From positions 34,587,449 through 34,651,448 of the forward strand of contig NC_079491.1 in NCBI RefSeq assembly GCF_020520425.1: DNA of 64,000 nt, written 5' to 3'. The position numbers were made by a program, and so were the translations under genes. The stretch is from Spinacia oleracea. Lineage: Eukaryota > Streptophyta > Magnoliopsida > Caryophyllales > Amaranthaceae. The notes under the pieces are model-generated. The model did not search any database. It was not told the DNA's origin and saw only the letters and a program-made list of their open reading frames with translations. Below, piece by piece: positions 35,361-58,524 of this stretch. Every line of letters begins with the position of its first letter. Position 1 is the stretch's first letter.

Positions 35361-35455
35361 ACAACAGCGACATCCTTTCTCAAACCCTAATCTAATTTCG
35401 CGAAATTATTCAGCTTGCTCCGCCGCAATCGCCGCCAACAACTTTCAGATCCGAC

Positions 35456-38400
35456 ATGGGCGACGGCGGCTATGAGCAATTTCAACCACCAATACCGATA
35501 TTTCTGCCACAATCACCGCCGACAACTTTCAGATCAGACATGGCCGACGGCTTTCAACCACCACCACCATTATTTCCGCCACAATTTCAACAACCAACAC
35601 AGATGTTTCCGCCACAATTTCAACCACCGAGTTTTCAACCTCGCCACCTTCAACATTCTCCTCGATTTCTAACACCACCGAATTTTCAACCTCGCCACCT
35701 TCAACATCCTCGATTTCTACCACCACCGATTTTTCAACCTCGCGACCGTCATCCTCCTCCTCGTTTTCAACCTCCTGCGCGATTTGATAACCCTAACCAA
35801 AGCGACCTTCATCCTACTCCTCGATTTCAACCTCCTGCCCGTTTTGATAACCATTATCAAAGCGATCTTCATCCTCCTTCTCGATTTCAACCTTCTGCGC
35901 AATTTGATAACCCTAATCAAAGGGCTTTTACAACATTGCAGCAAGTAACTACTGAAACAAGTTCTGGAACAAAGGAAAACACATCTGAAACAAGTTCTGC
36001 AACAACAGGAGAAACAACATCAGCTTATTTTTCAGGTTTTAAAATTAATTTAATGAATATAGTTAACTAATTGATTACTTGTCGTAACTAATTAGATTGT
36101 GCAATTAACTAAGCGGCTAAAAAACTAAACAAATTGGTTAACTAATTGCTTTGAAAGAATCACTAACTGGTAAAAATAGTTAACTAATTGGATAATAAAC
36201 TAAATAATATATAAAGGAACTTTTAATTTAAATAAATCACTGATTTCTTTAAGAACTTAACTAATTAATATCAATACTAAACTAATTTTTTTTAAAGCTA
36301 CTTTTCAAATTTCATTTTTCACTAAGTTAACCATTACCATCATTTAGGTAACCTTTTCCACCAAATAGTTAACTTTTTGAAGCAACTAGTTAACCTTTTC
36401 CACCAAATAGTTAACTTTTTGAAGCAATTAGTTAACTTTTATCATCAATTAGTTAACTTTTATCATCAATTAGTTAACTTGTACCATCAATTAGTTAAGT
36501 TGTTCCCTTAATTAGTTAACTTGTACCATCAATTAGTTAAGTTGTTCCCTTAATTAGTGAACTTTTATCATCAATTAGTTAACTTGTTCTCTCAATTAGT
36601 TCAATTGGTTAACTAATTTCCTGAATTATGTAACTAATTAGTTTCTTTTGTTAATTATTACTTTTGTTCATTTTACAGGTTCAAAAGATATTTGGAACGA
36701 TTTAACAGAGGATGATATTAGAGGACCTTTGACTGGATATACTGGCACTGTAGATGAACTACATGAACTTTATGACAAACATTCAATACTTCTTGGATTT
36801 TCAATAAGAAAAAATACATTAAGGAGAGATAAAAAAACGGGAGAGATAAAGGAAAGATACTTTTGTTGTTCAAAGGAAGGAAAGAGAAAGGAAAACACAA
36901 AGAACACAAAGAAAGAAGAAGCAACTGTATCAAGTGAGAGCAAACAGAAAGAGCAGTCAAAGAACCCAAGGCAGCAAAACCTTACTAGAACAGGGTGCAA
37001 CGCATCTATACGATTGAAGTTACAAAAGGATGGAAAGTTTATAGTCTTTCATCATGTTATAGAACACAATCATGCCTTAACAAGAGAGTCACTGCAAAAC
37101 TTTGAAAGGTACAAAACAAAATACAAGTAATTAGTTAACCATTAAATATATTTAGTTAGGCTTTGACATTAATTACTTAAGCGTTTAAATAATTTTGTTT
37201 TAATAATAAACTAGATAAAACAGTTACTTACCTTTTTCCATCAATTACTTAACTTTTTTCATAAATTAGTTAACCTTTTCCATGCATTAGTTAACTTTTT
37301 AAAACATTTAGTTAACGTTTTGCACCAATTAGTTTACTTTTTACCTCAATTACTTACTTCCTAAAACCATAAATTAACTTTTTCATCAATTAGTTAACTT
37401 TTTCAATCAATTAGTTACGTTTTTGCATGAATTAGGTAACTTTTATTTTAATAATATATTAGTTATTTACCTTTTACAACAAATAGTTAACTTTTTGCAT
37501 ATATTAGTTAACTTTTTGCATATATTAGTTAACTTTTTACAACAATTAGTTAACGTTTTGCATCATTTCCAGATCACAAAGAAAAATTGATGAAGAAAAG
37601 GGAAAAGTAATTGAAGGACTCACACTATCAGGAATAACACCAGCAGATTCCTATAGATAAATGTGTAATGAAGCTGGCGACGCAAGGGTGGTTGGACACA
37701 CATTAGTTGACCACATGAATTTCACAAGTAGATTAAAAATGAAAAGACTAGAAGGAAAAGATACACAAGCAGTTGTGAACATGTTAATTAAGAGAGGAGA
37801 AGAACATCCAAACTTTTATTTTCGAGTAAAGGTGAACGAGGCAAACCAAGTAATAAGCATGTTTTGGAGGGATGGAATGATGCAAGAAGATTATGACGTA
37901 TATGGTGATGTCTGTGTCTTTGACACAACTTTCAGAACAAACAAATACAATTTAGTTTGTGCGCCATTTGTAGGTGTCAACAACCATTGGAGTAATGTGA
38001 TGTTTGGTTGTGCTTTTATTGCTGATGAGAAGACACACACTTTTGTGTGGCTATTGGAAACATTTCTGGACTCTATGGGAGGCAAAGCACCTATAACTAT
38101 CTTTACAGATCAAGATCAAGCAATGGCAAATGCTATTGAACAAGTAAGAGTGTATTAACTATTTGGGTTTTATAGTTAACTAATTGCTAAAAGTTGTTAA
38201 CTATTTGCTACTGGTCTTTAACTAATGAATTGAAAAGTTTAACTAAATTGATAACCATTCATCAGTTACTTTTTCAATCAATTAGTTATCATATTACATA
38301 CATTAGTTAAGTTTTTGAATCAATTAGTTAACTTTTGCAATGAATTAGATAAGTTTTTGCATGAACTAGTTAACTTTTGTTTTAATAATATATTAGTTAC

Positions 38401-40622
38401 CTTTTTGCATGAATTAGTTAACTTTTTGCATGAATTAGTTAACTTTTTGCATCATTTTCAGATTCCTAACTAATACAGAATTCTGTTCTGACTTAACTAT
38501 ATAGTTTAAATTCTTAACTAATACATCATTCATCAAAAAAATTACAGGTATTTCCTAATACAAAACATAGATTATGCTTATGGCACTTACAAAAGAATGC
38601 TGTGTCAAGATTTGGAGACTTAAAAGCTGACAATACATTCAAAGACACATTCAAGAAGTGCTTATATCGTTGTTACAATGAAGAAGAATTTGAAACCACT
38701 TGGTTTGACATGATTACTAAGTATAACCTTCAAGATCATGATTGGTTTACAAATCTCTATACAATAAAAGAAAAATGGTGTACAGCTTTGAACAAAGATT
38801 TTTTCTCAGCTGGAATATTGTCTTCACAAAGGTAAATGCTTAAATAAAAGAAGTCCACTAATTTTTTTAATGCTAAACTAATTGCTCAGAATAATTCACT
38901 AATTGCTATGAATACTTCACTAATTACTATGAATACTTCACTAATTGCTTTGAATACTTCACAGTGTTTAACTAATGGTTTCATCTACTTAACTAATTCC
39001 TTTGCCTGCTTAACTAATTAATCAGAAAGATTAACTAATTAAACAAAATATTTAACTAAATGTTTCACCTTCTTAACTAGTTCCTTTGTTTTCTTAACTA
39101 ATTCCCGTACCTGCTTAACTAATTAAATAGAATGTTTAACTAATTCAATCTTGTTACACAGGAGTGAGAGCACTAACAATGCAATTGGATTTAAAGGGAA
39201 CAAATCAACTTCACTAACAGAATTCTTTCACATTTTTGGAGCAACAGTGGATCGTTGGAGATATCAAGAAGATCAAAATGAATATGATTGTGGAAATGCT
39301 TTGCCTAAATCTGATTTTCCAATGGTCGGAATGATAAAACATGCGGCAAATGTTTACACACTTACATTGTTTAGAGATTTTGAAAAAGAATTCAAGTATG
39401 CAATGGGTTGCATCTCAAATGTCAACTACATCAATGGAAATTTCTTTGGTTACAAAGTGCAACATGAATCTTGGCCTGAACATACTGCCCATTATGTAGC
39501 ATTTGATCCAACAACAAATTCCATTAAATGCACTTGTAGGAACTTCGAAGAATCAGGTTAGTTAATGCTCTTAACTAATTGCATTTTTACATACACTATC
39601 AATTAGTGAACTTTTTCTATCAATTAGTGAACTTTTTCTATCAATTAGTTAGCTTTTTCCATGAATTAGTTATACTATTAAGTTACCTAGTTTTGTATTC
39701 ACTTCAGTTAGTTTGTTGTACAATTAGTTAACTTTATTCATCAATTAGTTTACTTGTACCATCTATTAATTAATTTTTTCATCAATTAGTTAACTTTTTC
39801 TAACAATTAGTGAACTTTTACTATCAATTAGTTAGTCTTTTCCATGAATTAGTTATACTATTAACGTACCTAGTTTTGTATTCACTTCAGTTAGTTTGTT
39901 GTACAATTAGTTAACTTTATTCATCAATTAGTTTACTTGTACCATCTACTAATTAATTTTTTCATCACTTAGTTAACTTTTTCTATCAATTAGTGAACTT
40001 TTTCTATCAATTAGTTAACTTTTTTCATCAATTAGTTAATATTTTGATGTCACAATATGCAGGATGGCTATGTTTCCATGCAATACGAGTTCTACATATA
40101 CATTCTATAGTCAAAATTCCAGAGCAATACATTTCAAAAAGGTGGACAAAGTTTGCAAAAAGTGAAGTATGGAAGAGAATGGAACATAGAGAAGATAATG
40201 GAACAGAAAAGAGAAAAGTTACTCCATGGCGTTATGAGATGGCAAGAAATTTGTACAACTTGGTTATTAAATGTCAAGGGAGTGATGCAGCTAAAAAGGT
40301 TTTTAATAACTATTATTTAACTAATACATAACAATAAATACTAAATACTTCAAGAGTCTAACTATTTTGCTTTAAATCTTAACTAATAGGTGCTTAAAGA
40401 GGCTTATGCTCATGCTAACGAAAGCATAAATAAGGTTCTAGAAAAAAAAAAGCAGCAGAAAAGGAGGCAGCACAAAAGGCACAAGACGATGTTGAAGCAC
40501 AACAAACCACAATCAACATAGCACCGTCTACATCATCATCATCATCAAATGCACCACAAATAATAGTTGAAAATCCACCACTAGTGAAGACAAAAGGAAG
40601 AAGTAAAAGAAAAAAAGGATAA
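35456..40622 (+). CDS. FAR1-type Mutator-like transposase, seven exons, disrupted
   Basis: Exons 35456-36035, 36679-37108, 37573-38143, 38548-38831, 39162-39556, 40063-40298 and 40390-40622 join in phase with GT-AG introns, giving ~909 codons. Exon 1 is Pro/Gln-rich with three ~17-residue repeats (RFQPPARFDNPNQSDLHP type). Exon 2 holds the FAR1-type zinc-binding region (ERYFCCSKEGKRK, then RTGCNASIRLKL and HHVIEHNHAL). Exon 3 has the MULE DDE core: Asp in CVFDTTFRTNKYNLV and Asp in ITIFTDQDQAMANAI. The Glu of RSESTNNAIG at the start of exon 5 is the likely third catalytic residue. The SWIM zinc finger (CTCRNFEESGWLCFH) is split over exons 5 and 6. Breaks: a TAA in exon 3 between PADSYR and MCNEAGD, and one base missing from the A run near 40450, after which the other frame (AAEKEAAQKAQDD...) continues to the TAA at 40620. 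The introns are 21-bp repeats. Confidence 0.85.
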
Positions 40623-41929
40623 TTTGAGATAAGGACATCGTCAACAGCACCTACAGAATTTGGAACTTTTACACCAAAAGAACAACTTTTTTAGTGACAT
40701 TGGATTGAATTTAGTGTTTATCAAATTAGTTAACTTGTACCAGCAATTAGTTAACTTGTTCCCTCAATTAGTTAACTTGTTCCCTCAATTATTTAATATT
40801 GTTAACCTTACAATGCATTAGTTAACCTTTTCCATCAATTAGTTAACTTTTTTCAGCAATTAGTTAACTTTTCCCATCAATTAGTTAACTTTTTTCATCA
40901 ATTAGTTACCTTTCTATAAAAATTATTTAACTTGTTCCCTCAATTAGTTAACTTTTTTCAGCAATTAGTTAACTTGTTCCCTCAATTAGTTAACTAATTG
41001 ATTTCATTTTCAAAAGTCAAGTTACTGTAATTATTGTTGACGTCACAATATGCAGGATGACTATGTTTAACTAATATTGTTAACCTAAAAGTAGTTAACT
41101 TTTTGCATCAATTAGTTGAACTTACCACTCTTTAGTTAACCTTTACCATCAATTAGTTAACATTTTCCACCAAATAGTTAACTTTTTGCAGCAATTAGTT
41201 AACTATTTTCATTAATAACTTTTAACTAATTGAATTTGATATTTCACTAATTGAATTTAATGCTTAACTAATATATTGAATTAGATTGACTGACTTATGA
41301 AATATACCAAGTAAATAATTCAAAATAAGCTCCCTCAATTAGTTAACGTTTTCCCTCAAATAGTTACCTTTTTGTAAAAATTAGTTAACTTTTATCATCA
41401 ATTCACTAGTGGAAAAAGGCTTATTTGCATCCCCGCATTTGCCACGCCATTCTGAACATGTGATGCAAATAACAAATTTTAGCATAAAATTTACTCATTT
41501 GCGTCGCAGCTTTGTTAAACTGCGAGGCAAATGACTCTAGGATGCCCCCCAGAGCCATTTGCATCGCAGATTAACAAAGCTGCGAGGCAAATGACTCAAT
41601 CAAGTGCATCGCAGATTTACAAATCTGCGTGGCAAATGACTCTAGGAGCATCCTAGAGTCATTTGCCACGCATATTTGTAAATCTGCGATGCAATGTGTG
41701 TCCACCTAGGAATGTACTTTCTCGCTTTGACCCAGCACACCACACCAACACCGCAAACTTTCCGCCTCTTCTATCTTTCTCTCTCATCTATTCTTTTAGA
41801 ATCTCCATTGTTGGTACTCCAACACCTCTTCATCTCTCCTCCAACAACACAATATCAACCTTATTTTTCGACATCTCCTCTCACCAAAGCTGTCACAAAT
41901 ATAGTCAATTGGGTTTCTCTGAAATTCAA

Positions 41930-42170
41930 GATATGCGATGTCAAGAAGAGGCAAACCCTAGGTGTCGGCGCCGCGAAGAAGGCTAAGAAACATGCCGAAC
42001 TGCCGCGAAGAAGGCTAAGAAACGCCGAACTGCCTCTAAGAAACATGCTAAACTACCGCGAAGAGGCAAACCCTAGGTGTCGGCGCCGCGAAAATGTCAA
42101 TACGATTGGTTTGCATTTTCCGGCGGGTCATATTGCTTGGTTTTTGAAGGGTAAGAAACACGCTGGGTCA
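41930..42170 (+). pseudogene. captured histone H2A N-terminal fragment
   Basis: Two pieces match plant H2A. KKRQTLGVGAAKKAKK (about 41943-41990) resembles the start GKTLGSGAAKKA, and NTIGLHFPAGHIAWFLKGKK (about 42098-42157) resembles the first helix AGLQFPVGRIARFLKxGKYA. Between them the tail is partly duplicated (GGCAAACCCTAGGTGTCGGC occurs at 41949 and again at 42065). A base is missing after the likely initiator MSRRGK, which puts start and body in different frames. The histone fold beyond the first helix is lost. The upstream CTTTCTCTCTC stretch may be the captured 5' UTR. H2A identity is by motif and has not been aligned. Confidence 0.68.
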
Positions 42171-43683
42171 TATTGCTTGATTTCCAAATTCAATTAGTTT
42201 TGCACATTTTAAAAAAAATCTTATGAATCTAGGGTTTAATTATTTTGGTTAATGTGTGAATTTGAGTATCTTTTTGCCCGATTGTTTGGATTGTTAATTT
42301 GAGTATCTTGATTTCCATGTTCAATTAATTTTCTCTGGTTTTTTTCATTTGAATTTAGGGTTTAGTTATGTTGGTTAGTTTGTGAATTCAAGTATTTTTT
42401 TTTTCAATTTTTTATGAGTTTCGCTTTGAATTTGATGATAAATTAAGTGACTGATTTGAATTTGATGATAAATTAAGTGTTGAATTGAATTTGATGTAAT
42501 GTGACCTTTTTTTTATTGATGTTGAATTGCTAGATTTGTATCTAATTAGGATTTTTATTGTGACCTTTGGATCTTTTGAAGAGGAATCAGTATCTAATTA
42601 GGAATTTAGGATTTATATTCTTGTTTAATGCTTAGCAACCTTTTTCTAAGTAGTTTGAGGTGAAGAAAGGAGTTTCGTGGCTGACTTTAGATCAGCACTT
42701 TTGAGTTCAACAGGTTGGGAGACTTTCCCTTTGGATGTTTTTGAAGAGGAATCAGATTCCGTCGTCCAATTAAGATTTAGATTCTTATTTGTGGTTATTG
42801 TCCTCTTACAACTTGACTATTAGCTTTTTCCTAACAAATATTCTGTAAATTCTCTTTGTTCCAAGTATATATACAGGCCTTTTTAATTGAAAGCTTTGGA
42901 TAGTGATAGGTAGATGGGAGAGCTTCTGGTGCTGGATTTGTTTTCGTTTTTGGGGGGTATGTTTGACAATGATAAGTGCATACAAATTCTTTGTGTCTTT
43001 TTCTGTATTTTCGAGAGTAAGGCTCCGTTTGGTTTGACGGAAAACACAATTCCAAACTACTTTTCCTTCGTTTGTTTCATTACAAGAAAAGTTATAGAGA
43101 AAAGGAAAATGGAAATAGAATGGGGTTGATGGGAGGAGGAGGAGATGTAAGGAGGAGGGAGGAAAATGTGTTTCCCCTCCCTTTCAAAAGGAAAATGTTT
43201 TCCACCTTGATAGAGTTGTATTCCTCCATTTGGAAACAACTTTCCATCCCTTACAAACCAAACAAAGGAAAGTGGGAATCAAACACTCTCTAAATGTGTT
43301 CACATCAATTTTAGGGTATAAGACAGTTAATCAAAGAAGTATTTGTTTTATTTCTTTTGCTAATTCAAAGCACATTTTTTTTAATGTTTGTGTGAGTGTG
43401 GGACTGTAGTTTATTTTATTTTTTAATAGGAATGAGCCAAGATTTAAAAGCGTTGTTTTTTTTTTAATATATTTATCGTACTTCAAGCTTTAACAACTAT
43501 TTTCATATGTCATTTGTTTTCTTGGTGGATTTAATCCTTCTATCTCTATAGTATACCAAGATGTAAGTTGTAAACAGCCTACTTGATTTCCACCTCCCTC
43601 TTTTTGTTTGCTTATGCGATATCATTTGTTAAATAGAGCTCACGTATTGTTTGCTAATATCAATAACATGATGATGCTAAGTT

Positions 43684-44145
43684 GTGATATCTCATGTGTT
43701 TCAGATGCGAGCTGATAAATTGAAGACACAAATCGAGCTTACATTCAAACAGATGAACACTGGTGGGACAGAAGCAGAAAGAGGTAGAGAAAACATTGCC
43801 GAACTGGAAAGGGTCCAGCAAATCATGGATCAGTACAAACTGCAAGCTCAACAACTGGAAGAATTAGAAGTAAAGAAACGCACAGAAGAGTTGGCTGCGT
43901 TTGTAGCTAAAGAGCCTTCTCATCACTTGCTACGACTTGGCCATGATTGTTGGGACGTTGCTCGATACTACACTAGAAGCAAGAGAAACACTAGAAGATT
44001 CTGGGCAACAACTAATTTTTTTTTTTTTTTTGTTGGGTGTCAAGAGAAACCGTTAGATGGAATACATTGTTGTAGATATTTCAAGCTTTTGTATTGTAAA
44101 ATTTATGAAGGTACTGCCTTTACGTATTTAGTCTTATTGATTTGA
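43684..44145 (+). CDS. unrecognised coiled-coil frame inside CACTA element 1
   Basis: An open frame preceded by a good splice acceptor (GTGTTTCAG). Residues 8-80 are strongly charged and helical (TQIELTFKQMN, RENIAELERVQQIMDQYKLQ, LEELEVKKRTEELAAFVAKE), suggesting a coiled coil. The last part after ~residue 110 crosses a long T run and reads like non-coding sequence. I do not recognise the family. It may be an exon captured from a host gene or part of this CACTA family's own gene. It shares no motif with CACTA transposases. Confidence 0.35.
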   Translation: MISHVFQMRADKLKTQIELTFKQMNTGGTEAERGRENIAELERVQQIMDQYKLQAQQLEELEVKKRTEELAAFVAKEPSHHLLRLGHDCWDVARYYTRSKRNTRRFWATTNFFFFFVGCQEKPLDGIHCCRYFKLLYCKIYEGTAFTYLVLLI

Positions 44146-44719
44146 TGTGGTTCTATTTAATAATATGAGTTGTCTATTTTACTATATATATATATAGTAA
44201 AATGGAACCTATTTTTTTTACAAAATTCAAAGTCATTTGCGTCGCACATTAAGCTATTGTGCGTGGCAAATGACTTTTTTTTTTGGCGCCTGAAAGTCAT
44301 TTGCCACGCACTTTAAGCTAATGTGCGTGGCAAATGACCTTTCAACATGGTGCCTGAAAAGTCATTTGCCACGCACATTTGCTTAATGTGCGACGCAAAT
44401 AAGGGTCATTTGCATCGCACTTTTGTGCGATGCAAATGACTTTTAGTCATTTGCATCGAGATCTTTTGCCACGCACAATGTGCGACGCAAATGTGCTTAA
44501 AAGTGCGATGCAAATGACCCTTTTTCCACTAGTGATTAGTTACCTTTTTCTAAAAATTAGTTAACTTTTATCATCAATAAGTTAACTTGTACCATCTATT
44601 AATTAACTTGTTCCCTCAATTAGTTAACTTTTTCATCAATTAGTTAATTTGTACCATCAATTAGTTAACTTGTTCCCTCAATTAGTTTATAGTATTATTA
44701 GTTAATTTTTGCTATCAAT

Positions 44720-47700
44720 CACTACTACAAAAATGGGCAAAGAGACCTCTATGCAAAGAACCGTTAATCGACATAACGGGTCTCTTTTATATAAGAGATC
44801 CAATATTAGAGATAACGGGTCTCTAATTTGTACTAGGGCCCGCTAATTTACCACAAGAAAATAATAAGAGATCCCCTAACTGTTGTGACGGGTCTCATAC
44901 TCTCATATATACGCTGGGGCTTACTAGTTTGCCACAATAAAAAAACAAAAGATCTCCCAACTCACCTAACGGATCTCTAGAATTCAGCGGCCCACTACTT
45001 TGTGATATGAGGAAAAACAAAGACCCATCAATTGACTTCACGGGTCTCTTCTCTAGCCCATTTTTTTACTTAAAAATAAATTACAAAAGCCTCTCTCTTC
45101 TCACAACTATGCTTCTTTTGATTATTTACATTCCCATCTCATCTTCTCCCTCCTCGCATAAAATCGCCAGTTAGCCATGGTAGTTTTTTCTTCACCTTAT
45201 ATCTCTTTGTTCCTCACATTTCAATCTCCTGTAAATCGATTTTTCATGTTTTAATTAACAAGCGAGTGGACGGCGATGTCGCAGCAGTTGTAGCTTGTAG
45301 GAGACACCGTGTCGAAGAGATCCAATAATCGAGAATCGATCTTGATGCTTTGCTTGACTTCTCTATTGGTGAACTTGTCAAGATTTTCCCTGCTTTATTC
45401 GTAGAAAGCTAAGTGTAATGGTTTTCTTCTTCTTTTCTTTTGTTTCATCGATTAATGCCTAGATTTAATTGATCTAGTTCTTTAGAAACTAGGGTTTTAA
45501 TTGTGTTGAAATTGAATTGATTTGAGGCTAGAGACAGTTTATATGTGCTTGGTTGAAGTTAAGAAATCTTTGAAGCCTTTAGATTCGTGCTCCATGCCTG
45601 TTCTTTTTGGTACATTGTTGATTTTGCCCTGTTGATTGTATTGCTTGCTTTTTATGGAATCCAGATTTTGATCTGCTAATGCTCAAATTAGAGAGTTTGG
45701 GGAAATTGTTTATTGAATCCATTATTCATGTGGAGATGTGAAATTATCAGGTGTTTATGATAATTCGAGTAGGTTAGGTTTTGGTCTATAATTATCTAAA
45801 TTTGCAATTGTGGCCTTGTGAGGGGTTTCGTGGAATTAGAAATTTAGAAGTGTATTAGCTTAGCTACACACCAATTGTTCGAAAAATTCCTAAATGAAAT
45901 TTATGATATCATGTGAATTTTCACAACCACATAAACTACATTGCGCACCCGATTGTCACGAAATACGATTATGCCTTAACAGAAACTTTGAGATTTTTCT
46001 AGTTGAAATTTGTTTCTAATGATTAATGACTATCACAAAACATAAATTCTTGACATTTTTGAAGTTAAAATCAGAACTTTAGGCTAACATAGTTGTTAAT
46101 TTGGACCATTCATTCTTCTTTCATTACCTTTGACAAACTAGTGGATTTGACTCATAGTAATTGATTCCAACTTTGGCGTAACTAGCAGGTTGGGATGCAT
46201 ATTTCATATGATCCTCATGCACATATATACATGGATTCTGAATGCCCGTTTCAGGATATTTTTAAAGCTTGCAAATGTTAAATGTCTGCTACATTATTGG
46301 TAAGTCCAACCATTCTATGCAATATCTTACAAAAAACACACGCAAGATGATGCATCTCTCAAATTTATTTGACTATAGTCTTTGTCGTGTCTTCAATTTT
46401 ATTAATTTTACAATTATACATGAAGAAAGTATCTTTTGGAACTATCTGTAACGGGGAACTGTTGAGTTCATTTTGTTTTAGATTTTAACCATAGCTTTTT
46501 AAATGGATGATTTCCCCTTGATGTCTTTTTGTCAATCGTAAAACTGATTACCAACATGTTGTACAGTCTGTTTCAGTGTTTCTTTTTCCATCTTTAACTG
46601 CCAGCAGGGTCTGAAGGTCAATAGATTCAACATTTAAGATAATGTTTTACATAATTGAAGTGGGGGGTTAGAAAGAGAGCATTCTTGTCAGTTTATCCTC
46701 AATTTCTTTTGTTTTATCTCTCACTCAGCTTGTTTGTCAAGGAAACATCCCTCCCCTTTCTTAGCTTGTTTTTATATAAATATCTTTAAAAACTAAGTAG
46801 AACTTTTTATGATCTGAACCCTTGAAACTGCCAGTAAGTGGATATGTAACAGATTTACATTGTCTCAGCACATTAGTGAGTACTATTTAATTTCTTATGC
46901 TTACCACTTATACCATGTTGGATGATAATATTTCTTATTTAGAAAGATCAGAGTAGTATTTGCAGCGCGTCGTAATTGAGAGTGCAGTAACCGTACCTAA
47001 TGCTTAAGCGCTGAAACATTAGATGGTCTGAAAACTAAGGCAGACATATAGTGTGGGCTAAGCCATAGATGTTTGGTTATATGCTTCATTATATGTTCTT
47101 TGTTTCTCTCATTCTTTTCCTTCAGCGACATTGATTTTTTCCCTTTTCTGTTCCCATAATAGTTATGTTAGTAACCATTTGCTCTTCTATCTATTTTGTT
47201 TTTACTACTGTCAACATATTCTCTTACAGTTACCCAATTCTAATTGTTGTTTATAATAATTCACATTATTATGTGTGAATATAATTACCAAGTAAGATTG
47301 TAAAGTAAGGATTTTTTTTTGACAAATTTGCCTCTTTTTACTATCTAATATTGTCAAAATTTACGCAGGGGGCTTATAAAATTTAGCATTCTCAACTGAA
47401 ACGATGTTAAGAAAATAGAAAAGAATCCAAAAGTTGGGTAGAAGTAACCACATTATTTCATTTGTATACTATGGCTGTTACAGTCTCAAAGGTTATACAT
47501 AGTTTTATCTAGACTAACGTGTTTTGTTTTCGAATGAGTATAACATAAGTAGGAAAATGTTATTCCCTTGTCAGTGTAATTAAAGAATTATAGAGTTTTG
47601 ATTGTTGTTACTGTAATTACACTCTTGTCATGCTGTTAGATTTTTGTCTAAAGGTGGTTTTAGATTGTAGGCAATTAAGTAAGATCACTCTCTTAAATTA

Positions 47701-49123
47701 TAATAACATGGTCTATTCAATGATAGATTAGGCAGGACAACCTTAGTTGGGTGTACCTGTTTTGAGTTAATTGAGTTTGACCTGTCATGTGAATTGTGGG
47801 AGAGATTGATTCCAATTGAAGAACTTAGGCTGCTTTGGTAAACTGGTAGCTGTTGTTTGTTTTTTGTAGTGTGGTGGGTCTCTTCCTTTGTAAATCATCT
47901 TTGTTACAATTGTATATATATTGCTTATATAAAAAAAAGGAGTGGAACTTAAAAAGAACTCAAACATAAACTAGCAACTTGAGGCTACCTATCTTGGAGA
48001 TAGTGACTTTACGTCATAAGTGTCAATAAGGCAGTTTGTTCTTTGTTGAGGCTTTACCTGTTTTGTTAACAATTATAGAACAATGCATTTGTTTAACTAC
48101 TAATTTTTCTACTTATTACAGTTTTTTGAAGAAACTTATTCATCGGAAAATGTGGATGAGGTTAGAAACCTGCGGGTCGAGTATTTGCTCAAGCAAGAAG
48201 CGGATGAAGAAAACAAAGTTGATGGTATGAAAATAACTCCATAGTTTCGGTTTCAATTGTTAGTAAATTGGTGTGAATGATTATATTTTGGGACTGGTTT
48301 TGTTTTACATTTTCGGAAACTGCGATGTAAAGCTTTGACGTTTATGGATCTTTGACGTTATGGAAATTACAATTAATGTAAAAGCTTTTGTGTTTTGAGC
48401 ATTACTTTTTTTTTGGTAATATATGAATTATTATGAAATTGTTCTCAAATTATTACAAATTATATATTATAGCAGCAGGTTTGGTTTTATGGGTTTAATG
48501 CCTTCTAGTATCTATAGCATTGCAACCCAGCAGGTGTAATTTCAGGTTATATATGATGGTGTACGTATTTCGCAGCTCTTGAAGGTGTAATATATATTAA
48601 TGTTGAATTGGTACATCTGGTGTATTCGCAGGTTCAAACCTGCTATTATTGATTATTTTTTTTTGCAAAGAGACCCGTTAGGTATAAAAATGGCTCTTTA
48701 GTTATAATAATAAAAAAAATTCAAAGATACCTCATATCTAACATATGGGGTCTTAATTTGTAAAATATTAAAATATTAAAAGTAACAAAGAGACCCCCTA
48801 TCCTATATACGAGGTCTTAATTTTTTGAATTAAAAGAATAAAAAATTCAAAGAGACCTCTTATCTTACATATGAGATCTCAATATTTTTAACAAACAGAT
48901 CCCATATCTCTAAAAAGGGGTCTCTTTCCCTTCTAAATTATTTTCGACCAAGTTTATATAAGAGACCTTCTTTCTTACGTGAGGGGTCTCTAGCTTTTAA
49001 CAAACAGACCCCCTCTAAATGAGGGGGTCTCTTTATCAAAGAGACCTTTGATATAGAGACCCCTTGAAAGGAGGTCTCTTATGCCATTTTGGAAGGGTCT
49101 CTTTGCCGTTTTTTGTAGTAGTG
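44720..49123. mobile_element. CACTA (En/Spm-type) non-autonomous element 2
   Basis: The ends CACTACTACAAAAA and TTTTTTGTAGTAGTG are inverted repeats with the 3-bp target duplication AAT (44717-44719 and 49124-49126). Subterminal regions of 350-450 bp are filled with AGAGACC / GGTCTCT words. The flanks rejoin to ATCAATTAGTTAAC, showing insertion into the 21-bp array. The inside looks like captured host gene sequence (5' UTR-like at 45070-45420, long introns, an exon at 48122-48224). No transposase is seen. Confidence 0.92.
48122..48224 (+). pseudogene. captured exon of unknown host gene in CACTA element 2
   Basis: A 103-nt segment between ATTACAG and a GTATGA donor reads FFEETYSSENVDEVRNLRVE then YLLKQEADEENKVD without a stop. 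The codons look protein-like and the splice signals are good. I do not recognise the protein. Other exons are absent or scrambled. Confidence 0.45.
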
Positions 49124-49127
49124 AATT

Positions 49128-50110
49128 AGTTAACTTTTTCTATCAATTAGTGAACTTTTTCTATGAATTAGTTAGCCTTTTCCATGAATTAGTTATTCTA
49201 TTAAGGTACCTAGTTTTGTATTCACTTCAGTTAGTTTGTTGTACGATTAGTTAACTTTTTCTATCAATTAGTGAAATTTTTCTATCAATTAGTTAGCCTT
49301 TTCCATGAATTAGTTATTCTATTAAGGTACCTAGTTTTGTATTCACTTCAGTTAGTTTGTTGTACAATTAGTTAACTTTTTTCATCAATTAGTTAATTTG
49401 TACCATCAATTAGTTAACTTGTTCCCTCAATTAGTTAACAAATTGATTTTATTTTCAAAAGTTAAGTTACTATAATTATTGTTGATGTCACAATATGCAG
49501 GATGACTATGTTTAACTAATATTGTTAACCTAAAAGTAGTTAACCTTTACAATCTATAAGTTAACCTTTTCCATCAATTAGTTAACTTTTTGCAGCAATT
49601 AGTTAACTAATTGAATCAATTAGTTAAGTTTTTCCATCAATTACCTACATTGTAAAGTAACTAGTTTTGTATTCATTTCAATTAGTTTATAGTATTATTA
49701 GTTAATTTTTGCTATCAATTAGTTAACTTTTTCTATCAATTAGTGAACTTTTTCTATGAATTAGTTAGCCTTTTCCATGAATTAGTTATTCTATTAAGGT
49801 ACCTAGTTTTGTATTCACTTCAGTTAGTTTGTTGTACGATTAGTTAACTTTTTCTATCAATTAGTGAACTTTTTATATGAATTAGTTAGCCTTTTCCATG
49901 AATTAGTTATTCTATTAAGGTACCTAGTTTTGTATTCACTTCAGTTAGTTTGTTGTACAATTAGTTAACTTTTTTCATCAATTAGTTAACTTGTACCATC
50001 AATTAGTTAACTTGTTCCCTTAATAAGTTAACAAATTGATTTTATTTTCAAAAGTTAAGTTACTATAATTATTCTTGATGTCACAATATGCAGGATGATT
50101 ATGTTTCACT
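49128..50110. repeat. higher-order repeat blocks in the spacer between the two convergent genes
   Basis: A unit of about 120-125 bp (several 21-bp motifs, then TTCTATTAAGGTACCTAGTT, then TTCACTTCAGTTAGTTTG) occurs at about 49128, 49248, 49719 and 49841, almost unchanged. The same unit occurs twice in intron 5 of the transposase gene (about 39600-39910) and, on the opposite strand, in a Ulp1-gene intron (about 52770-53270). Confidence 0.85.
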
Positions 50111-50507
50111 AATATTGTTAACCTAAAAGTAGTTAACTTTTTGCATCAATTAGTTAACCTTTACAATCTATAAGTTAACCCTTTCCATCAATTAGTTAAC
50201 TTTTTGCATCAATTAGTTAACTAATTGAATTTGATATTTAACTAATTGAATTTAATGCTTAACTAATATATTGAATTAGCTTGACTGACTTATGAAATAT
50301 ATCAAGTAAATAATTCAAAATAAGCTCCTACTAAATATATATATACCAAAAGAGCTACTTGCCCAAAATATTCAAAGATTAAATTTCTGTTTTAAAGTAC
50401 CTATTCTCAAAATATATCAACCAAACAGAGCAGTTAATAAAAATATTCACATATTAAATTGTTTACTAAATAACAACTAAAAACAACCTGATAGATAAGT
50501 TTACTGA

Positions 50508-53500
50508 TTAACTGGAAGGTGGCTTATGATGAACAACTTCTGGTCTCTTTTGTTTCGGTGCAATAGTAGCTTTGTTTTGATCCATATCAGAGAATGGCAC
50601 TGCTTCTACTGTTGGCACTGCTTCAGCTGCTACCACTGGTTCGTTGTTCTTGGCAATTCGCCTTGATGACTTGTATGTTCTCAAAGGAGCATTGTCATTT
50701 TCTTCTGGCTTCTCTTGGGCTGCTGCTTTTCTTTTTGCAATTGTTTCTAACCTTTTTCCTTGTAGTTTCAGCCTTTTTTAAATCAGCCTGCTGTTTCAAC
50801 TTTACAGCCTCTTCTTCTTCTAGCTTCTTCTTTGCTTCTGCTTCTTTTCTCTGTCTTTCTTCTTCTTCTTTCTTTTTCTTTCGGCGATCACGAACAGCAT
50901 GGGAAATACCAACTTTAATCATGTTGAATGATTCCATTTCCTCCAGCACATCAACCTGAATATCATTCATATCAGAAAGGACTAAGGTTGAACAAATCTT
51001 AGCCCGTAACATTGTCCTTGTACCGCGCTGAAATAAAAACATAATATATAAGATAATGTATGTGTACTAAATACTGATTGTATGAAACAAAAAATAGGTT
51101 TATTAATAGATTAAAAAAGTTAACTAGTTGGTGTAAAAAGTTCACTAATAAATTTAATAGTTAACTAATTGCTACTCCCTCCGTCCCGGAATACTTGACC
51201 TGTTTTCCTTATCGGGCCGTCCCTTAATACTTGACCTGTTTCTAAAAATAGAAATATTCTAACAATATTATATTATTTCTCACTCCACCCCTATTAACCC
51301 ACCTACCCCTACTCCATACAAAAAATAATTAAAAATTCAACCCCTACTCTCCCCTAACCCCACCCCTTTACACATTTCCCACTAACTACATTAAAATAAT
51401 ACCCCACTATCAACTACTACCTATTAAATTAAATAAGTCAATTCAAGTCCCTTAAACTCTGTGCCGGTCAAACCGGGTCGAGTATTTCGGGACGGAGGGA
51501 GTATAAAAAGTTAACTAATTGCAGTAAAAAGTTAACTAATTGTTGTAAAAAGTTAACTAATTGCTGTAAAAAGTTAACTAATTGCTATAAAAAGTTAACT
51601 AATTGCTGTAAAAAGTTAACTTATTGCAGTAAAAAGTTAACTAATTGCTGTTAAAAGTTAACTAATTGCTATAAAAAGTTAACTAATTGCAGTAAAAAGT
51701 TAACTAATTGTTGTAAAAAGTTAACTAATTGCTGTAAAAAGTTAACTAATTGCTGTAAAAAGTTAACTAATTGTAGTAAAAAGTTAACTAATTGCAGTAA
51801 AAAGTTACCTAAATTGATTAACTACTTGATAGAAAAAGTTGTTAAAAAGTTAAAACAATAACTAATTGATGAAAAAGATAACTAATTGATGGGACAAGTT
51901 AACTAATAGATGGAAAAAGTTAACTAATTATTGTTAAAAGCTTAATGGATGAAAAAGGTAAACTAATTAATGTAAAAAGTAAACTAACTGAAAAAAGGTT
52001 AACTATTTGAAGTAATAAGTTAACTAATTGAAGAAAAAAGTTACCTAATTCATGAAATACTTAATTTGAAACTATTGAAACTAGAAAAGATAAACTAATT
52101 GCTTGAAAATCTTAACTAAAGTAGACTTACATAAGAAAGGTCCATGGGAATATTTTTGCCATTAAAGTACTGCATTGCTGTCATCAAAAAAATTCCGCAA
52201 TCTACATGATCAGGGTTATCTGATCTCCCAGCAAAGTCCAGAATTGACATTTCAAAAGTTAAGCAATCAGCAGCAGCCGCATGGCCAATCTCTAGCAGAA
52301 ACTGTGCAAATCCTTCAATAAGCAATGACACCATTGCCATATAATCATCATGAATCTTCTTACTCCAAATTATGTTGTCAACATAGACAAGACTTCTCTG
52401 ATTTATGTTGACAATCAACAGAGAGAGGTGTTCTTGGTAAATAATGGGAAAGAAAAACTGCAAATGAATCAAGGAAAAAAAGTAAGAAAAATCAAACTAA
52501 AATATATAAAAACTTAACTATTTAATATCACAAATTAACTATTACATATAAAAGCATAACTACCAAAATACCAACTTACCATTCCCACATTTTTCAGATC
52601 GAATCTGTGGTCATTGATTTGCACCCAATATTTCCAACTATTGATAAGTTCTTCAATAATTCGATTTAGAGATTCAGCTGATTTCGTCTTAAGAGACCTT
52701 CAAGCTTCCTCTGGCATAAGCAAAAAACCAAATTTAATTAGAAAACAGTATAAACAAATTAACTGAACTGAATACAAAACTAGGTACTAACTAATTGATG
52801 GAAAAGGATAACTAATTCATGGAAAAAGTTAACTAGTTGATAGAAATAGTTAACTATTTGATTGCAAAAGTTAACTAATTGATAGCAAAAGTTAACTAAT
52901 TGATAGAAAAAGTTAACTAATTGTACAACAAACTAACTGAAGTAAATACGAAACTAGGTACCTTAATAGTATAACTAATTCATGGAAAAGGCTAACTAAT
53001 TGATTGAAAAAGTTCACTAATTGATAGAAAAAGTTCACTAATTGATAGAAAAGGTTCACTAATTGATAGAAAATGTTAACTAAATGTACAACAAACTACC
53101 TGAAATGAATACAAACCTAGGTACCTTAATAGAATAACTAATTCATGGGAAACTAATTGATAGAAAAAGTTCACTAATTGATAGAAAAAGTTAACTAATT
53201 GATAGCAAAAATTAACTAATAATACCACAAACTAATTGAAATGAATACAAAACTAGTTACTTTACAGTGTAGGTAATTGATGGAAAAACTTAACTAATTG
53301 TTTGAAAAGGTTAACTAATTGTCAGAACAAGTTAACTAAATGATTTAAAAAGTTAAAAAGTTAACTACTTGATGGAAAATGTTAAGTAATTGATGTAAAA
53401 AAATAATAATTGTGGTAAAAAGATAAGTAACTCATTATTTAAACGATACAACATAAAAAAGTAAAGGACATTAATAAAAAAAATTACGTAAAATAGAAAC

Positions 53501-56500
53501 TAACCGTGTACTCAACACCAAAATAGAAATTGTTTTGTTCTTTATTCAACATGAACTGATTTTTGTTCAAGAGAATAGACCAAATCTCAACAATGTTGGA
53601 TAAGATATATTCCTCAGGAACCAAACATTGCATTTCCTCCCTATTTATTTTGTGGAGCATCCCAAAAATAAAAACATCAGCCCTGTTACACAAAAATTAA
53701 AACAAATAAATAAGGAAAATATTGAATTATGTAAAAATCTCAACTAAATGACATATATAGTTAACTAATTCATCTCACAAGATAGCTAATTGTTAACTTA
53801 CAGTTGATCAAGTGCCTCATCATCCAAGAAACAGAAGTCAATTACTTCTTTTTCCAGTCTCCTCAGACGACCGAGGGTTTTCGGAAATCTCTCCATTAAC
53901 TCAGATAAGCAGAAGACTTCTTCTGTAGCGACTTCTTCTGTAGCAGAACCAATGGGAAGACTGCTATAGAAACTCCTAGCTTCTCGTTCAGGTTCAGCAA
54001 CTTGGGGAGCAACATTTCCAGAACCTTCAACATTTTTCTCAATTGGCCCCTTATCACCAGGTCCATTATCACCAGGACCCTTGTCAGCAGCACCAACATT
54101 CTCCTGAATTGGCCCCTTGTCAGCAGCACCATCAACAGCTTGAGAAGGAGCATTATCATCAACAGCATTATTTTCGTTTCTCAAGTGTTCAGCATAGGCA
54201 ACAATTGAGTCAATAATCTCCAAAAACACAGGATCACTGTATCCTGGACTGTCTGATAATTCTTGTCGCCGACTCTTTAACAAATTTATACGGTCCTTAT
54301 GGAAACTGGACACAACATATAAATCGCGACAATATATTCTCATTGCCAATTGCAACTCCTTCACACAAAAAAAAAAGAGAAAAATATTAAGAAAAGAAAA
54401 CAACAGCTAAATAGTTAACTCATTGAATTATCTAAACAATTATATAATTCATGGAAAAAGATAACTATTTGATGGAATACATTAACTAATTGCTGTATAA
54501 AGTTAACTAATTAAAGGAAAAGATTAACTATTCGATGAAATAACTTAACTAATTGATGGAATGATGAAACTATTGGAAAAATTCATTAAAAAATAAGTTC
54601 ACTTATAGAGAAAAATAGTTAACTAATTGATGAAATAAGATAACTAATTGCTGAAATAGGTTAACTAATTCATAAAACAAGTAACACTTGGTTAACTACT
54701 TAATGGAAAAAGTTGAGTAATTGCTGTAAAAACTTAACTAATTTAAGCAAAAGGTTAACTATTGTGAGATAGGTTAACTAATTGAATAAAAAGGTTTACT
54801 AATTCATAAAAAAGGTTAACTAATTGATGGTACAAGTTAACTAATTGAATAAAAAGGTTTACTAATTCATAAAAAGGTTAACTAATTGATGGTACAGGTT
54901 AACTAATTGAATAAAAAGGTTTACTAATTCATAAAAAAGGTTAACTAATTGCAAAATAGGAACTCCTTCACACAAAAAAAAAAGATAACTAATTGATGAA
55001 ATACATTAACTAATTGTTGTATAACGTTAACTAATTAAAGGAAAAGGTTAACTATTTGATGAAATAACTTAACTAATTGATGGAATGATGAAAGATTGAA
55101 AAAATTCATTAAAAAATAAGTTAACTAATTGATGAAATAAGATAACTAATTGCTGAAATAGGTAACTAATTCATAAAACAAATAACACTTGGTTAACTAA
55201 TTAATGGAAAAAGTTGACTAATTGCTGTAAAAGGTTAACTAATTTAAGCAAAAGGTTAACTATTGTAATAGGTTAACTAATTGAATAAAAAGGTTTACTA
55301 ATTCATAAAAAAGGTTAACTAATTGATGGTACAAGTTAACTAATTGAATAAAAAGGTTTACTAATTCATAAAAAAGGTTAACTAATTGATGGTACAAGTT
55401 AACTAATTGAATAAAAAGGTTTACTAATTCATAAAAAGGTTAACTAATTGATGGTACAGGTTAACTAATTGAATAAAAAGGTTTACTAATTCATAACAAA
55501 AGTTAACTAATTGACAAAATAGGTTAACTATTAAAAAGATTCATTAAATATGAACAAAAATAAATATGAACATTATCATGACTTACATCATCGCAGGTAG
55601 CTTGAATTTCAGCATCTGTTTGAAGACTTTCCGGAATTTGAAACTCAATAATCCTGCTTCGATCAGCTTGGGAATTATCCGGTGCACCTTCCGAAGGTTT
55701 AGCAGAAGCAGCAGGAGCACCAGAAGCAGCACGAGCAGCAGAAGCAGAAGGAGCAGCAGAAGCAGAAGGAGCAGCAGAAGCTTCAGGAGCAGCAGAAGCT
55801 TCAGGAACCTCGAGTTTGATAGGGTTAAGACCCCCTAACAAATCAGCAAAAGTCTTAGACACGGGATAGCTGGTTATATCAACCAAAGCTACCCCAAAAC
55901 CCATCTTCTCTTCGGAAACCAGACGTTCAGTCACTTGTTCATCATTCCAATGTTGAACAAGTGAGATTTCCTTAGGAGGGACTACACCCCGAAATAACGA
56001 TCTTTGGAGATAAATTATCTCCAAAAATAGAACACAGCCACCAACCTTGTCATTTTTGACACTCGCTCTCCACCTCTCGACAGCAAACCCAAGCTGGTTT
56101 AACACGTATTTACACCAATTTTGTTTCACAATCTGTGAAACATCCTCAACAGCCTTCAAAACCTTGATGTCTAACAACCGGTTAGACGTAGGAGCCAAAA
56201 ATACACCTATAAAAACAATAAGATAATTACAGAAATCAATAAGATAATAGGTTAACTAATTCATAAAAATAGTTCACTAATTAATGTAAAAAGTTAACTA
56301 AATGATGAAGAAAATTAACTAAATGTAAAATAGGTTAACTGATTGATGAAAACAGTAACTAATGGATAAAAAAGGTAAACTAATTATTAAAATGAACTAA
56401 TTAATGAAAAAAGAAGAATAATTAATAAAAAAAGGTAAACTAATTAATGTAAATAGTGAACTATATACTTGCTGTTAAAGGTAAATAACTTGAGCATAAT

Positions 56501-58125
56501 TAATTTAGAAATTTTTACCTAAAACATATACCACAAAGGCACGTTTAAAATAATCTCCACATTCATCTGTTTTCAAAAAAGATTCCAACTCCGTCAAGGT
56601 GGGTGCCTGAACAGTTGGTTTCTTGTGGAACTTCTCATTCCATCTTTGAATCATTTCATGGTTGGCATCTCCTTCAACCCGCTTTCTTGGCGTCTCTTGA
56701 ACATCAAAATCCTTGTTCCATGGCAAGCCAAAGACGTCATAGACATCATAATCATATAACTGAACATTTTGTGTTTCTCCAAACTGGAGCATATGACCAA
56801 CACAATTAAAATGTTGAAGCAGCCATGGAACAAGGCGTGTGTTGACTTCATGAAGTCGAACACTCAACAAACCACCAAAACCAATCTCTTTAATGGCTTT
56901 CACTTTGTTATCATTCTTCTTTATAGAATTAAGAAGATTAATCAACGCCTCTGGTCTACAATTTAGTTTGTAACCCCTACACAAAACAAAAGAATTTAAT
57001 TAATGAAAATATTTAACTAATTGCTTAAGAAGTTAACTAATTAAAGAAAAAGGTTAACTATTTAATGAAATAGGTTAACTAACTGCAAAAAACTTCACTA
57101 TTCATGCAATAGGTTAACTAGTTGATGAAATAGGTTAACTAATTAATGGAAAAAGTTAACTAATTGCAGTCAAAAGTTAACTAATTATTGAGTTAACTAA
57201 TTGCAGTCAAAAGTTAACTAATTAATGTAAAAGGTTAACTAATTAGTGAAAAAGTTAACTAATTAGTGGAAAGATTCTTTTTAAAAAAAAGGTTAACTAA
57301 TTACTGAAAAATATTTAACTAATTGTGTTTAAAGGTTAACTAATTATTTTAATTACATAACTACTTCATATAGGTAAAATAATTTGTTTCAAAGCAAAAG
57401 TAATTAATTTAAAAATAAATAACAAATAGTCATACCTATCCAACTAATTAAACAGTGATAAATAACAGTTACAAAGATAGGTTAACTAATTGAAGAAAAA
57501 GGTTAACTATTTAATGAAATAGGTTAACTAACTGAAAAAAACTTCACTAATCATGCAATAGGTTAACTAATTGATGAAATAGGTTAACTAATTAATGGAA
57601 AAAGTTAACTATTTGCAGTCAAAAGTAAACTAATTATTGAGTTAACTAATTGCAGTCAAAAGTTAACTAATTAATGGAAAAGGTTAACTAATTAGTGGAA
57701 AAAGTTAACTAATTAGTGGAAAGATTCTTTTTAAAAAAGGTTAACTAATTACTGAAAAATATTTAACTAATTGCAGTCAAAATTTAACTAAATTATGCAA
57801 AAAGTTCACTAAATGTAAAATAAGTTATGATAATTGCAAAATCAATTTTTAAATAGTCATACCTATCCAACTAATTAAATAGTGATAAGTAACAGTTACA
57901 AAGATAGGAGTTATACCTATCCAACTCTACAACTTCCCCGCCATCTTCCGTATATTCTAGTTTAACTTTCGACTTCTTTGGCCCCCTTCCAATTTTCCTC
58001 TCATCTGCACTCAGCTTTGGACTAGCTGGAATATCTTCAGTCGGCCTTGAACTGCCTTCAACATCTTGACTCGACTTCCCAGCATCGTGATAATCAGATG
58101 CTTTGTTTGCATTTTTTGACCTCAT
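50508..58125 (-). CDS. Ulp1-like cysteine protease of the giant MULE, eight exons, disrupted
   Basis: Minus-strand exons 57917-58125, 56519-56976, 55587-56206, 53802-54358, 53505-53682, 52580-52708, 52131-52457 and 51027 down to 50508 join in phase, about 1,000 codons. Exon 1 is a polar N-terminus (MRSKNANKASDY). Exon 2 carries RPEALINLLNSIKKND, IGFGGLLSVRLHEVNTRLV and YDVFGLPW, the N-terminal domain usual in plant transposon ULP proteins. Exon 3 continues it (LAPTSNRLLDIKVLKAVEDV) and ends with Ala/Ser/Pro repeats. Exons 5-7 are the C48 protease: His in QEHLSLLIVNI, Asp in VYVDNIIW and Cys in DHVDCGIFLM. The oxyanion Gln seems replaced by Asn. Exon 8 has a KKKKEEEERQRKEAEAKKK coiled stretch. 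Breaks: a TGA in exon 6 just before RSLKTKSAES, and a one-base frameshift near 50755-50760, after which the frame LETIAKRKAAAQEKPEEN runs to the TAA. Family members resemble SUMO proteases; the real substrate is unknown. Confidence 0.83.
51175..51501. mobile_element. Stowaway MITE inside the 21-bp array
   Basis: 327 bp with TA on both sides (51173-51174 and 51502-51503). The left end CTCCCTCCGTCCCGGAATAC and the right end, read as CTCCCTCCGTCCCGAAATAC, are nearly perfect inverted repeats. Removing it restores TAATTGCTATAAAAAG, which matches neighbouring array units, so the pre-insertion site is directly readable. Confidence 0.93.
51503..51810 (-). repeat. regular 21-bp tandem array in the last Ulp1-gene intron
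   Basis: About 14 successive units of GTAAAAAGTTAACTAATTGC plus one variable base, period 21 bp, with only scattered substitutions. This is the most regular stretch of the 21-bp family in the window. Confidence 0.93.
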
Positions 58126-58524
58126 TATGTGAACTGAAACTATAAATGAATGTAGTTCAATATATTGCAATGCGCAAATAAAAAGAATGTGTAATGAACC
58201 TAAGCAGTATAAATAGCAATAAAAACAAAACAATTTCATTGTGTAACTAATTGCTTTGAATGTTTCACTAACAGGTTAAAATAGTTAACTAATTGGATTA
58301 TGCAATTAACTAATTGGTCAAAAAAGTGAACTAATTGCTCAAGAAAGTTTGAAATTAAATAAATTAACTAATTCGTTTAATACTTGATTTATGAATGTCA
58401 GAATATGACTAATTGCTTTGAAAGAATAACTAATTGGTAAAAATAATTAACTAATTGATTAAAAAACTAACTATTTATCAGCGAACTTTTAATTGAACAA
58501 ATTGAACAAAAACACCAAAACAAA

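What the first reader, a model, noticed from the sequence alone, without database searches (positions are those of the whole stretch)
36060..58470. One 21-bp repeat fills the introns of two unrelated transposon genes, always in the direction of transcription
The sequence shows AATTAGTTAAC-type units in nearly all introns of the plus-strand transposase gene and, inverted, in the introns of the minus-strand Ulp1 gene, plus the spacer. Exons and later insertions are free of it. Random spread would not keep the same polarity relative to transcription in two convergent genes. Possible reasons: the T-rich side serves as polypyrimidine tract and CTAAC/CTAAT as branch points, so only one orientation splices; or units spread by copying within transcribed RNA/DNA. 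I know of no described transposon with intron-filling minisatellites of this kind.
Basis: partly seen in the sequence, partly recalled or inferred. Interest (0 to 1): 0.92.

Follow-up and report, generated by a model that had tools for sequence, protein, structure and literature searches.

The report
Transposon packed with putative anti-silencing sites
A plant jumping gene carries over two hundred exact or near-exact copies of an 11-letter DNA word, mostly 21 letters apart, in the non-coding parts of its two genes and the space between them, most likely as landing sites for a protein of its own that lifts host silencing; systems of this kind are known from Arabidopsis, and this looks like a variant of them.

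Summary
The arrays are real. The element is a ~24-kb Mutator-like transposon (MULE) with a 9-11 bp target duplication and no long terminal inverted repeat. It holds a FAR1-MULE-SWIM transposase gene (+ strand, one in-frame stop) and a convergent 930-codon Ulp1 gene (- strand). AATTAGTTAAC with at most one mismatch occurs 161 times sense and 19 times antisense in introns (8 of the 19 are palindrome overlaps) and 0 times in 5,473 bp of modelled exon. "Always" is wrong: one intron is wholly antisense and two begin with antisense blocks. The core is conserved and the outer linker is not, yet spacing is exactly 21 bp in 132 of 142 close neighbours. Spacer arrays include unspliced intron/exon junction copies, so spread was at DNA level. 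What looks new: a FAR1-type MULE with it, a new candidate motif, and strong polarity with transcription, which I attribute mainly to T-rich linkers that suit plant introns. Binding and demethylation are inferred, not shown; DUF1985, a VANC hallmark, is only a sub-threshold match.

The parts
35207..59276 (.). MULE transposon body, with two nested CACTA elements and one MITE inside; end points uncertain by 1-2 bp
   Evidence: TSD and a paralogous empty site at 59517-59669
35196..35206 (.). left target-site duplication AAAATAAAACA (9-11 bp, exact length ambiguous)
   Evidence: exact match to 59277-59287
59277..59287 (.). right target-site duplication
35456..40298 (+). transposase gene, modelled exons 35456-36035, 36679-37108, 37573-38143, 38548-38831, 39162-39556, 40063-40298; one in-frame stop in exon 3; 3' end of the model is open, further coding sequence may follow
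   Evidence: GT-AG splice model; Pfam MULE 5.7e-29, FAR1 3.6e-18, SWIM 1.5e-4
50695..58125 (-). Ulp1 / VANC-like gene, modelled exons 58125-57917, 56976-56519, 56206-55587, 54358-53802, 53682-53512, 52697-52580, 52457-52131, 51027-50695; 930-codon open frame
   Evidence: splice model; Peptidase_C48 6.7e-8, DUF1985 0.35 below its cut-off
36036..36678 (+). plus intron 1: antisense block at the 5' side, then sense array (14 sense / 5 antisense, 3 overlapping)
37109..37572 (+). plus intron 2: sense array (12 / 0)
38144..38547 (+). plus intron 3: antisense block, then sense array (5 / 2)
38832..39161 (-). plus-gene intron 4: array wholly antisense to the gene (0 / 6), the main exception
39557..40062 (+). 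plus intron 5: sense array (13 / 1); shares an 84% block over 447 alignment columns with minus intron 5
40299..41403 (+). region 3' of the modelled transposase exons, array (18 / 3, 2 overlapping); copied intron-5/exon-6 junction at 41039
   Evidence: counted there as 40299-41410
44535..44719 (+). array remnant between the two nested CACTA elements (5 / 0)
   Evidence: counted as 44536-44719
49124..50510 (+). spacer array (26 / 5, 4 overlapping, plus one exact copy at 49124); intron-5/exon-6 junction copies at 49484 and 50077
   Evidence: counted as 49125-50510
51028..52130 (-). minus intron 7 array (23 / 1, overlapping), with a MITE-like insert at 51175-51503
52698..53511 (-). minus intron 5 array (18 / 1, overlapping)
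54359..55586 (-). minus intron 3 array (41 / 3, all 3 overlapping); duplicate of its own acceptor region at 54959
56207..56518 (-). minus intron 2 array (6 / 0)
56977..57916 (-). minus intron 1 array (28 / 0)
58126..58520 (-). array upstream of the minus gene's ATG (5 / 1, overlapping)

Best explanation
The repeat is most likely a dense array of binding sites for the element's own VANC-like anti-silencing protein, the convergent Ulp1 gene product. Shown here: exact motif confined to the element's non-coding DNA within this window, 21-bp phase kept, core conserved over the outer linker, DNA-level copying of blocks between introns and spacer. Inferred from the Arabidopsis VANC system: the protein binds the AATTAGTTAAC core in side-by-side sites about two helical turns apart, removes DNA methylation from the element and so keeps its genes expressed. 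Non-coding DNA, introns above all, is where sites can accumulate without breaking proteins. Direct repeats arise by tandem duplication and block copying. The sense bias is inferred to come from selection for T-rich introns: the linker is T-rich on the transcript strand, so arrays in the other orientation tend to hurt splicing and are lost, unless their linkers lose the A-rich tract.
For: MULE transposase plus an Ulp1 gene in one element. Sub-threshold DUF1985 match at residues 173-259, E 0.35 against 24,736 families, i.e. about 1.4e-5 if this one family is tested as the prior hypothesis (my division). 9-11 bp TSD, no long TIR. Motif 0 in modelled exons, dense in the element's non-coding DNA, 2 hits with one mismatch in about 40 kb of flanks, 0 in nested TEs. 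Leave-one-out conservation (threshold 13 of 20): core positions 1-11 76-95% consensus, T-tract positions 12-16 67-93%, linker positions 17-21 37-69%. Spacing 21 bp in 132 of 142 close pairs while 72 distinct 10-bp linkers share 60% mean pairwise identity. Junction copies show DNA-level duplication. VANC21 binds same-orientation motif arrays in introns, intergenic and terminal regions that evolve by tandem repeat formation (PMC5735166). Some VANC genes carry Ulp1 (KIU) and act on motifs of their own group (review PMC13317346, passages). Peptide repeats in the minus protein (seen in the translation) recall the tandem peptide motifs reported for VANC variable regions. Polarity: linkers after sense cores have 50-67% T and 14-30% A on the transcript strand in the 11 segments with sense hits (spacer not examined); the 14 antisense cores of plus intron 4 have linkers with T 0.33, A 0.35 rather than an A-rich complement (sense taken at <=1, antisense at <=2 mismatches); T exceeds A in 12 of 12 introns and in neither exon set.
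Against: No binding, methylation or expression data. DUF1985 is below its Pfam cut-off, ranks below a surely spurious collagen hit (E 0.044), was not reported at E <= 1 for the two exons scanned singly, and no DUF287 was reported. The motif differs from VANC21 (YAGTATTAY) and VANC6 (AGTTGTCC/AC) motifs. VANDAL transposases are tabulated with SWIM and CCHC, not FAR1 (PMC6446971, passages). The transposase has an in-frame stop here. The outermost ~0.85 kb on the left and at least 0.75 kb on the right lack the motif at <=1 mismatch, whereas VANC21 also marks terminal regions. Non-intronic arrays (spacer, upstream of the minus gene) are also T-rich on the strand counted, so T-richness is not specific to introns; the spacer may have inherited it. 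One copy only: core conservation could partly reflect homogenisation.
Confidence: 0.63

Rival explanations
1. Splicing modules: each unit supplies a branch-point-like TTAAC and a following T tract, so arrays are kept because they help splice long introns, and mostly one orientation works.
For: Sense bias; T-rich linkers on the transcript strand; T-tract positions 67-93% conserved; taking the second A of TTAAC as branch point, the last sense unit (<=2 mismatches) puts it 18-60 nt from the acceptor in 7 of 12 introns (my arithmetic; the range is recalled).
Against: With a unit every 21 bp such positions are expected anyway; plus intron 4 is wholly antisense and still has GT-AG ends; arrays also occur in the spacer and upstream of the minus gene; the core is somewhat more conserved than the T tract (means about 0.87 and 0.79).
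Confidence: 0.15
2. Neutral minisatellite: slippage and ectopic gene conversion spread one 21-bp unit inside the element, with no function; exons are free of it because insertions there break the proteins.
For: Higher-order repeats, block sharing between introns, junction copies.
Against: Core conserved far more than linker positions 17-21 and 21-bp phase kept despite linker divergence, neither expected without selection, though homogenisation could mimic part of it; an Ulp1 gene sits in the same element.
Confidence: 0.15
3. Sites for the element's own FAR1-type transposase, like subterminal repeats of CACTA elements (that comparison is recalled).
For: The transposase has a FAR1 DNA-binding domain.
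Against: The outermost ~0.75-0.85 kb of the element lack the motif and it is densest in internal introns, the reverse of a transposition-site layout.
Confidence: 0.07

Closest known systems
VANDAL21 (Hiun) / VANC21 anti-silencing system of Arabidopsis (PMC5735166, parts 1-3 of 6 and passages)
   Same: MULE-group element; extra gene beside the transposase; short motif in same-orientation dense arrays, mainly in non-coding DNA including introns; tandem-repeat evolution
   Different: FAR1-type transposase, Ulp1 domain in the second gene, different motif, 21-bp unit in 11 of 12 introns, motif missing from the outermost ~0.75-0.85 kb; binding untested here
Kaonashi (KIU) Ulp1-bearing VANDALs and ULP-bearing MULEs of melon, grapevine and rice (PMC13317346 and PMC2528002, passages)
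   Same: MULE with Ulp1 sequence downstream of the transposase; both orientations and Jittery-like carriers are reported in grapevine; KIU members act on motifs of their own group
   Different: No intron-filling 21-bp arrays are mentioned in the passages I read; motifs not comparable here
Jittery-group MULEs (PMC6446971, table passages)
   Same: FAR1 in the N-terminus, SWIM or CCHC in the C-terminus of the transposase; some without TIRs
   Different: One ORF and a TSD given as 8 bp or not indicated, against two genes and 9-11 bp here; no anti-silencing gene is listed for the group in the passages seen

Membership tests
MULE (Mutator superfamily) | MULE transposase domain | tested here: met
   Pfam MULE 5.7e-29 on the spliced frame with X at the stop
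MULE (Mutator superfamily) | 8-11 bp target-site duplication | tested here: met
   9-11 bp, AAAATAAAACA at both ends, plus a paralogous empty site; feature from PMC6446971 passages
Jittery-type MULE | N-terminal FAR1 and C-terminal SWIM or CCHC in the transposase | tested here: met
   FAR1 3.6e-18, SWIM 1.5e-4; FAR1 also occurs in other MULE groups and no tree was built, so the group is likely, not proven
VANDAL clade | degenerate or missing TIRs | tested here: met
   best local alignment of the first ~257 bp with the reverse complement of the last ~293 bp spans 26 columns, score 16
VANDAL clade | VANDAL-type transposase (SWIM and CCHC) | tested here: not met
   FAR1 present, no CCHC family among the 5 reported at E <= 10; not filed as a VANDAL
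VANC anti-silencing system | second gene with DUF1985 and, in some, Ulp1 | tested here: inconclusive
   Peptidase_C48 6.7e-8, above cut-off; DUF1985 E 0.35, below cut-off; DUF287 not reported
VANC anti-silencing system | short motif in dense same-orientation arrays, mainly in non-coding DNA of the element | tested here: met
   restriction to the element tested only within this 64-kb window, genome not held
VANC anti-silencing system | protein binds the motif | not testable with these tools
   needs EMSA or ChIP
VANC anti-silencing system | expression causes loss of DNA methylation over the element | not testable with these tools
   needs a transgene and bisulfite sequencing

The most novel reading that the evidence does not exclude
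Orientation relative to transcription is part of the mechanism: the site must read in the transcript direction in both convergent genes, because the anti-silencing factor acts on transcribed, opened DNA (or on nascent RNA) and the same unit serves as protein site and intron signal, so that one 21-bp word both defends the element and helps splice its genes.
Probability: 0.12. Interest if true: 0.8.

Novelty: new variant of a known kind. Interest (0 to 1): 0.52.

Why it matters
If right, VANC-type self-protection against DNA methylation extends to a FAR1-type (probably Jittery-like) MULE, with a new candidate target motif and an unusually regular array. It would give a second, independent array on which to test whether site density and helical phase set the specificity, and another sequence-specific tool to lift methylation at chosen plant loci.

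Tried and rejected
Whole-genome search for the motif: no genome held. A two-unit pattern (AATTAGTTAACTT, 7 bases, CAATTAGTTAACTT) gave 0 matches in viral contigs and 0 in genome contigs; neither holds plants by design, so this says nothing about plants. PDB search with the Ulp1 core piece: 0 at E <= 1. PDB search with the transposase piece: 1 weak match, a Mutator family transposase, E 0.19. Paper searches seen as listings only: VANC terms, Ulp1 MULEs (20 of 26 listed), repeats in introns of transposase genes (5 listed), Jittery/Ulp1/anti-silencing (5 listed), U-rich plant introns (5 listed); no title or abstract start among them described this arrangement, and the key EMBO J 2022 paper is not held. 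Considered and dropped: random spread; transposase-site arrays; spliced-RNA copying. Polarity set by the nearer element end is not excluded: it is confounded with transcription because the genes converge; one 91-bp block near the two ends (36141-36231, 58408-58497) is a direct, not inverted, copy. Structure prediction was not run: the spliced proteins are not contiguous in the window and no homologues were held.
Full report
What was checked. I counted AATTAGTTAAC on both strands in exons, introns, spacer, nested elements and flanks after modelling both genes. The plus gene has 6 modelled exons with GT-AG introns and one in-frame stop in exon 3; its 3' end is open, and an open frame at 40434-40619 may be more of it. 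The minus gene has 8 modelled exons and an open frame of 930 codons; a shifted frame stays open to 50511, so its true end is uncertain. With at most one mismatch the introns hold 161 sense and 19 antisense copies in 6,985 bp, the modelled exons none in 5,473 bp, the left flank 1 and 1 in 35.2 kb, the right flank none in 4.7 kb, and the two nested CACTA elements none. Eight of the 19 intronic antisense hits overlap a sense hit, because AATTAGTTAACTAATT is its own reverse complement. The minus gene then has 117 sense and no independent antisense copies, the plus gene 44 and 11. At two mismatches the raw intron counts are 199 and 108 (sum); 35 of the antisense ones, over 11 introns, do not overlap a one-mismatch sense hit.

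Where the finding overstates. Plus intron 4 is antisense throughout (0 sense, 6 antisense), plus introns 1 and 3 begin with antisense blocks, and intron 5 has one antisense unit. Three of the 14 sense hits of intron 1 lie on the palindrome and could be read either way. Ten of 11 introns with hits are majority sense, p = 0.006 one-sided by a sign test, but blocks have been copied between introns, so these are not independent, and one of the ten rests on a single hit. Of the best blastn block per pair of 16 non-coding segments and strand, taken in transcript orientation, 64 of 65 at E <= 1e-20 are sense to sense.

What the element is. An 11-bp repeat AAAATAAAACA flanks it (35196-35206, 59277-59287), and a paralogous empty site at 59517-59669 matches the joined flanks with 3 mismatches in 153 columns. 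No long terminal inverted repeat was found. The plus protein has FAR1 (3.6e-18), MULE (5.7e-29) and SWIM (1.5e-4) matches; the minus protein has an Ulp1 peptidase C48 match (6.7e-8) and a sub-threshold DUF1985 match (0.35), ranked below a surely spurious collagen family at 0.044. Two CACTA-type elements (41404-44534 with ATT, 44720-49123 with AAT as 3-bp target duplications; read) and a MITE-like insert (51175-51503) landed later inside the arrays. My counting segments set these borders up to 7 bp off; one exact copy at 49124 is lost by that.

What the arrays show. Neighbouring sense cores 14-28 bp apart are exactly 21 bp apart in 132 of 142 cases, although 72 distinct linkers share only 60% identity; over all 219 neighbouring same-strand pairs it is 138. 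In a leave-one-out profile (at least 13 of the other 20 positions matching) core positions 1-11 are 76-95% consensus, T-tract positions 12-16 67-93% and linker positions 17-21 37-69%. That looks like a binding site with a T tract and fixed spacing of about two helical turns, more than like an ageing minisatellite. Three extra copies of the intron-5/exon-6 junction lie at 41039, 49484 and 50077, plus intron 5 shares an 84% block over 447 columns with minus intron 5, and minus intron 3 holds a second copy of its own acceptor region. Spread was therefore by DNA duplication or conversion of unspliced segments, and the spacer plausibly inherited its polarity from intron 5.

Best explanation. Hosaka et al. 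2017 (PMC5735166; [quoted passage not shown] Passages of PMC10398659 say that VANC targets and RNA-directed methylation meet in the same non-coding regions. A review (PMC13317346, passages) states that some VANC genes carry an Ulp1 domain and act on motifs of their own group. Grapevine work (PMC2528002, passages) reports Ulp1 sequences in Jittery-like MULEs and in both orientations. I recall, but could not read, that Sasaki et al. 2022 name helical periodicity of motifs as a determinant. The element here fits this picture in anatomy: I propose that its Ulp1 protein binds AATTAGTTAAC arrays and lifts silencing. Binding and demethylation are inferred.

Polarity. On the transcript strand, linkers after sense cores are T-rich (50-67% T, 14-30% A in 11 segments), while linkers next to the 14 antisense cores of intron 4 are not A-rich (T 0.33, A 0.35), as a simple flip would give (different mismatch limits for the two groups, and older divergence could also explain it). 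T exceeds A in 12 of 12 introns and in neither exon set, but also in the spacer and upstream of the minus gene. I infer that plant introns tolerate the T-rich side and select against the A-rich side. The need of plant introns for U-richness is recalled, not taken from a paper read here. Orientation towards the nearer end is confounded with transcription, since the genes converge.

Limits. One copy, no host genome, no expression or methylation data, organism unknown; a plant is inferred from FAR1 and MULE domains, an auxin-responsive gene nearby and intron style. The DUF1985 match is below its cut-off, and a FAR1-type transposase places the element outside the VANDAL clade as tabulated in PMC6446971, so I file it as VANC-like, not as a VANDAL.

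Noticed in passing
41404-44534 and 44720-49123: Two CACTA-type elements nested in the array, each with CACTA...TAGTG ends and a 3-bp target duplication; the first has ~64-bp tandem units of a hairpin-like sequence at 44229-44400.
   Followed up: partly
51175-51503: MITE-like insert with CTCCCTCCGTCCC ends inside minus intron 7.
   Followed up: no
59517-59669: Second copy of the element's target region without the insertion, about 230 bp beyond the right target duplication: a local duplication that serves as an empty site.
   Followed up: yes
introns of both genes, e.g. 36326-36508 and 51672-51821: Because 21 is a multiple of 3, stretches of the arrays read through as QLVNFF-like open frames; gene finders may call them exons.
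   Followed up: no
55701-55799 and about 54030-54135: Tandem peptide repeats (A/S/P-rich and ADKGP-like) in the Ulp1 protein, similar in kind to the repeats described for VANC variable regions.
   Followed up: partly
36141-36231 and 58408-58497: A 91-bp, 86% direct repeat near both ends of the element, antisense in the plus gene and sense for the minus gene.
   Followed up: partly
31140-31628; 17396-17821; 59732-59814: Neighbouring host genes: mitochondrial ribosomal protein (MRP-S28, 1.9e-7), auxin-responsive protein (4.8e-17), and tRNA-Leu with anticodon CAG.
   Followed up: partly
9707-10209 and 63420-64000: A nearly perfect 250-bp tandem duplication and an array of 125-162-bp units.
   Followed up: no
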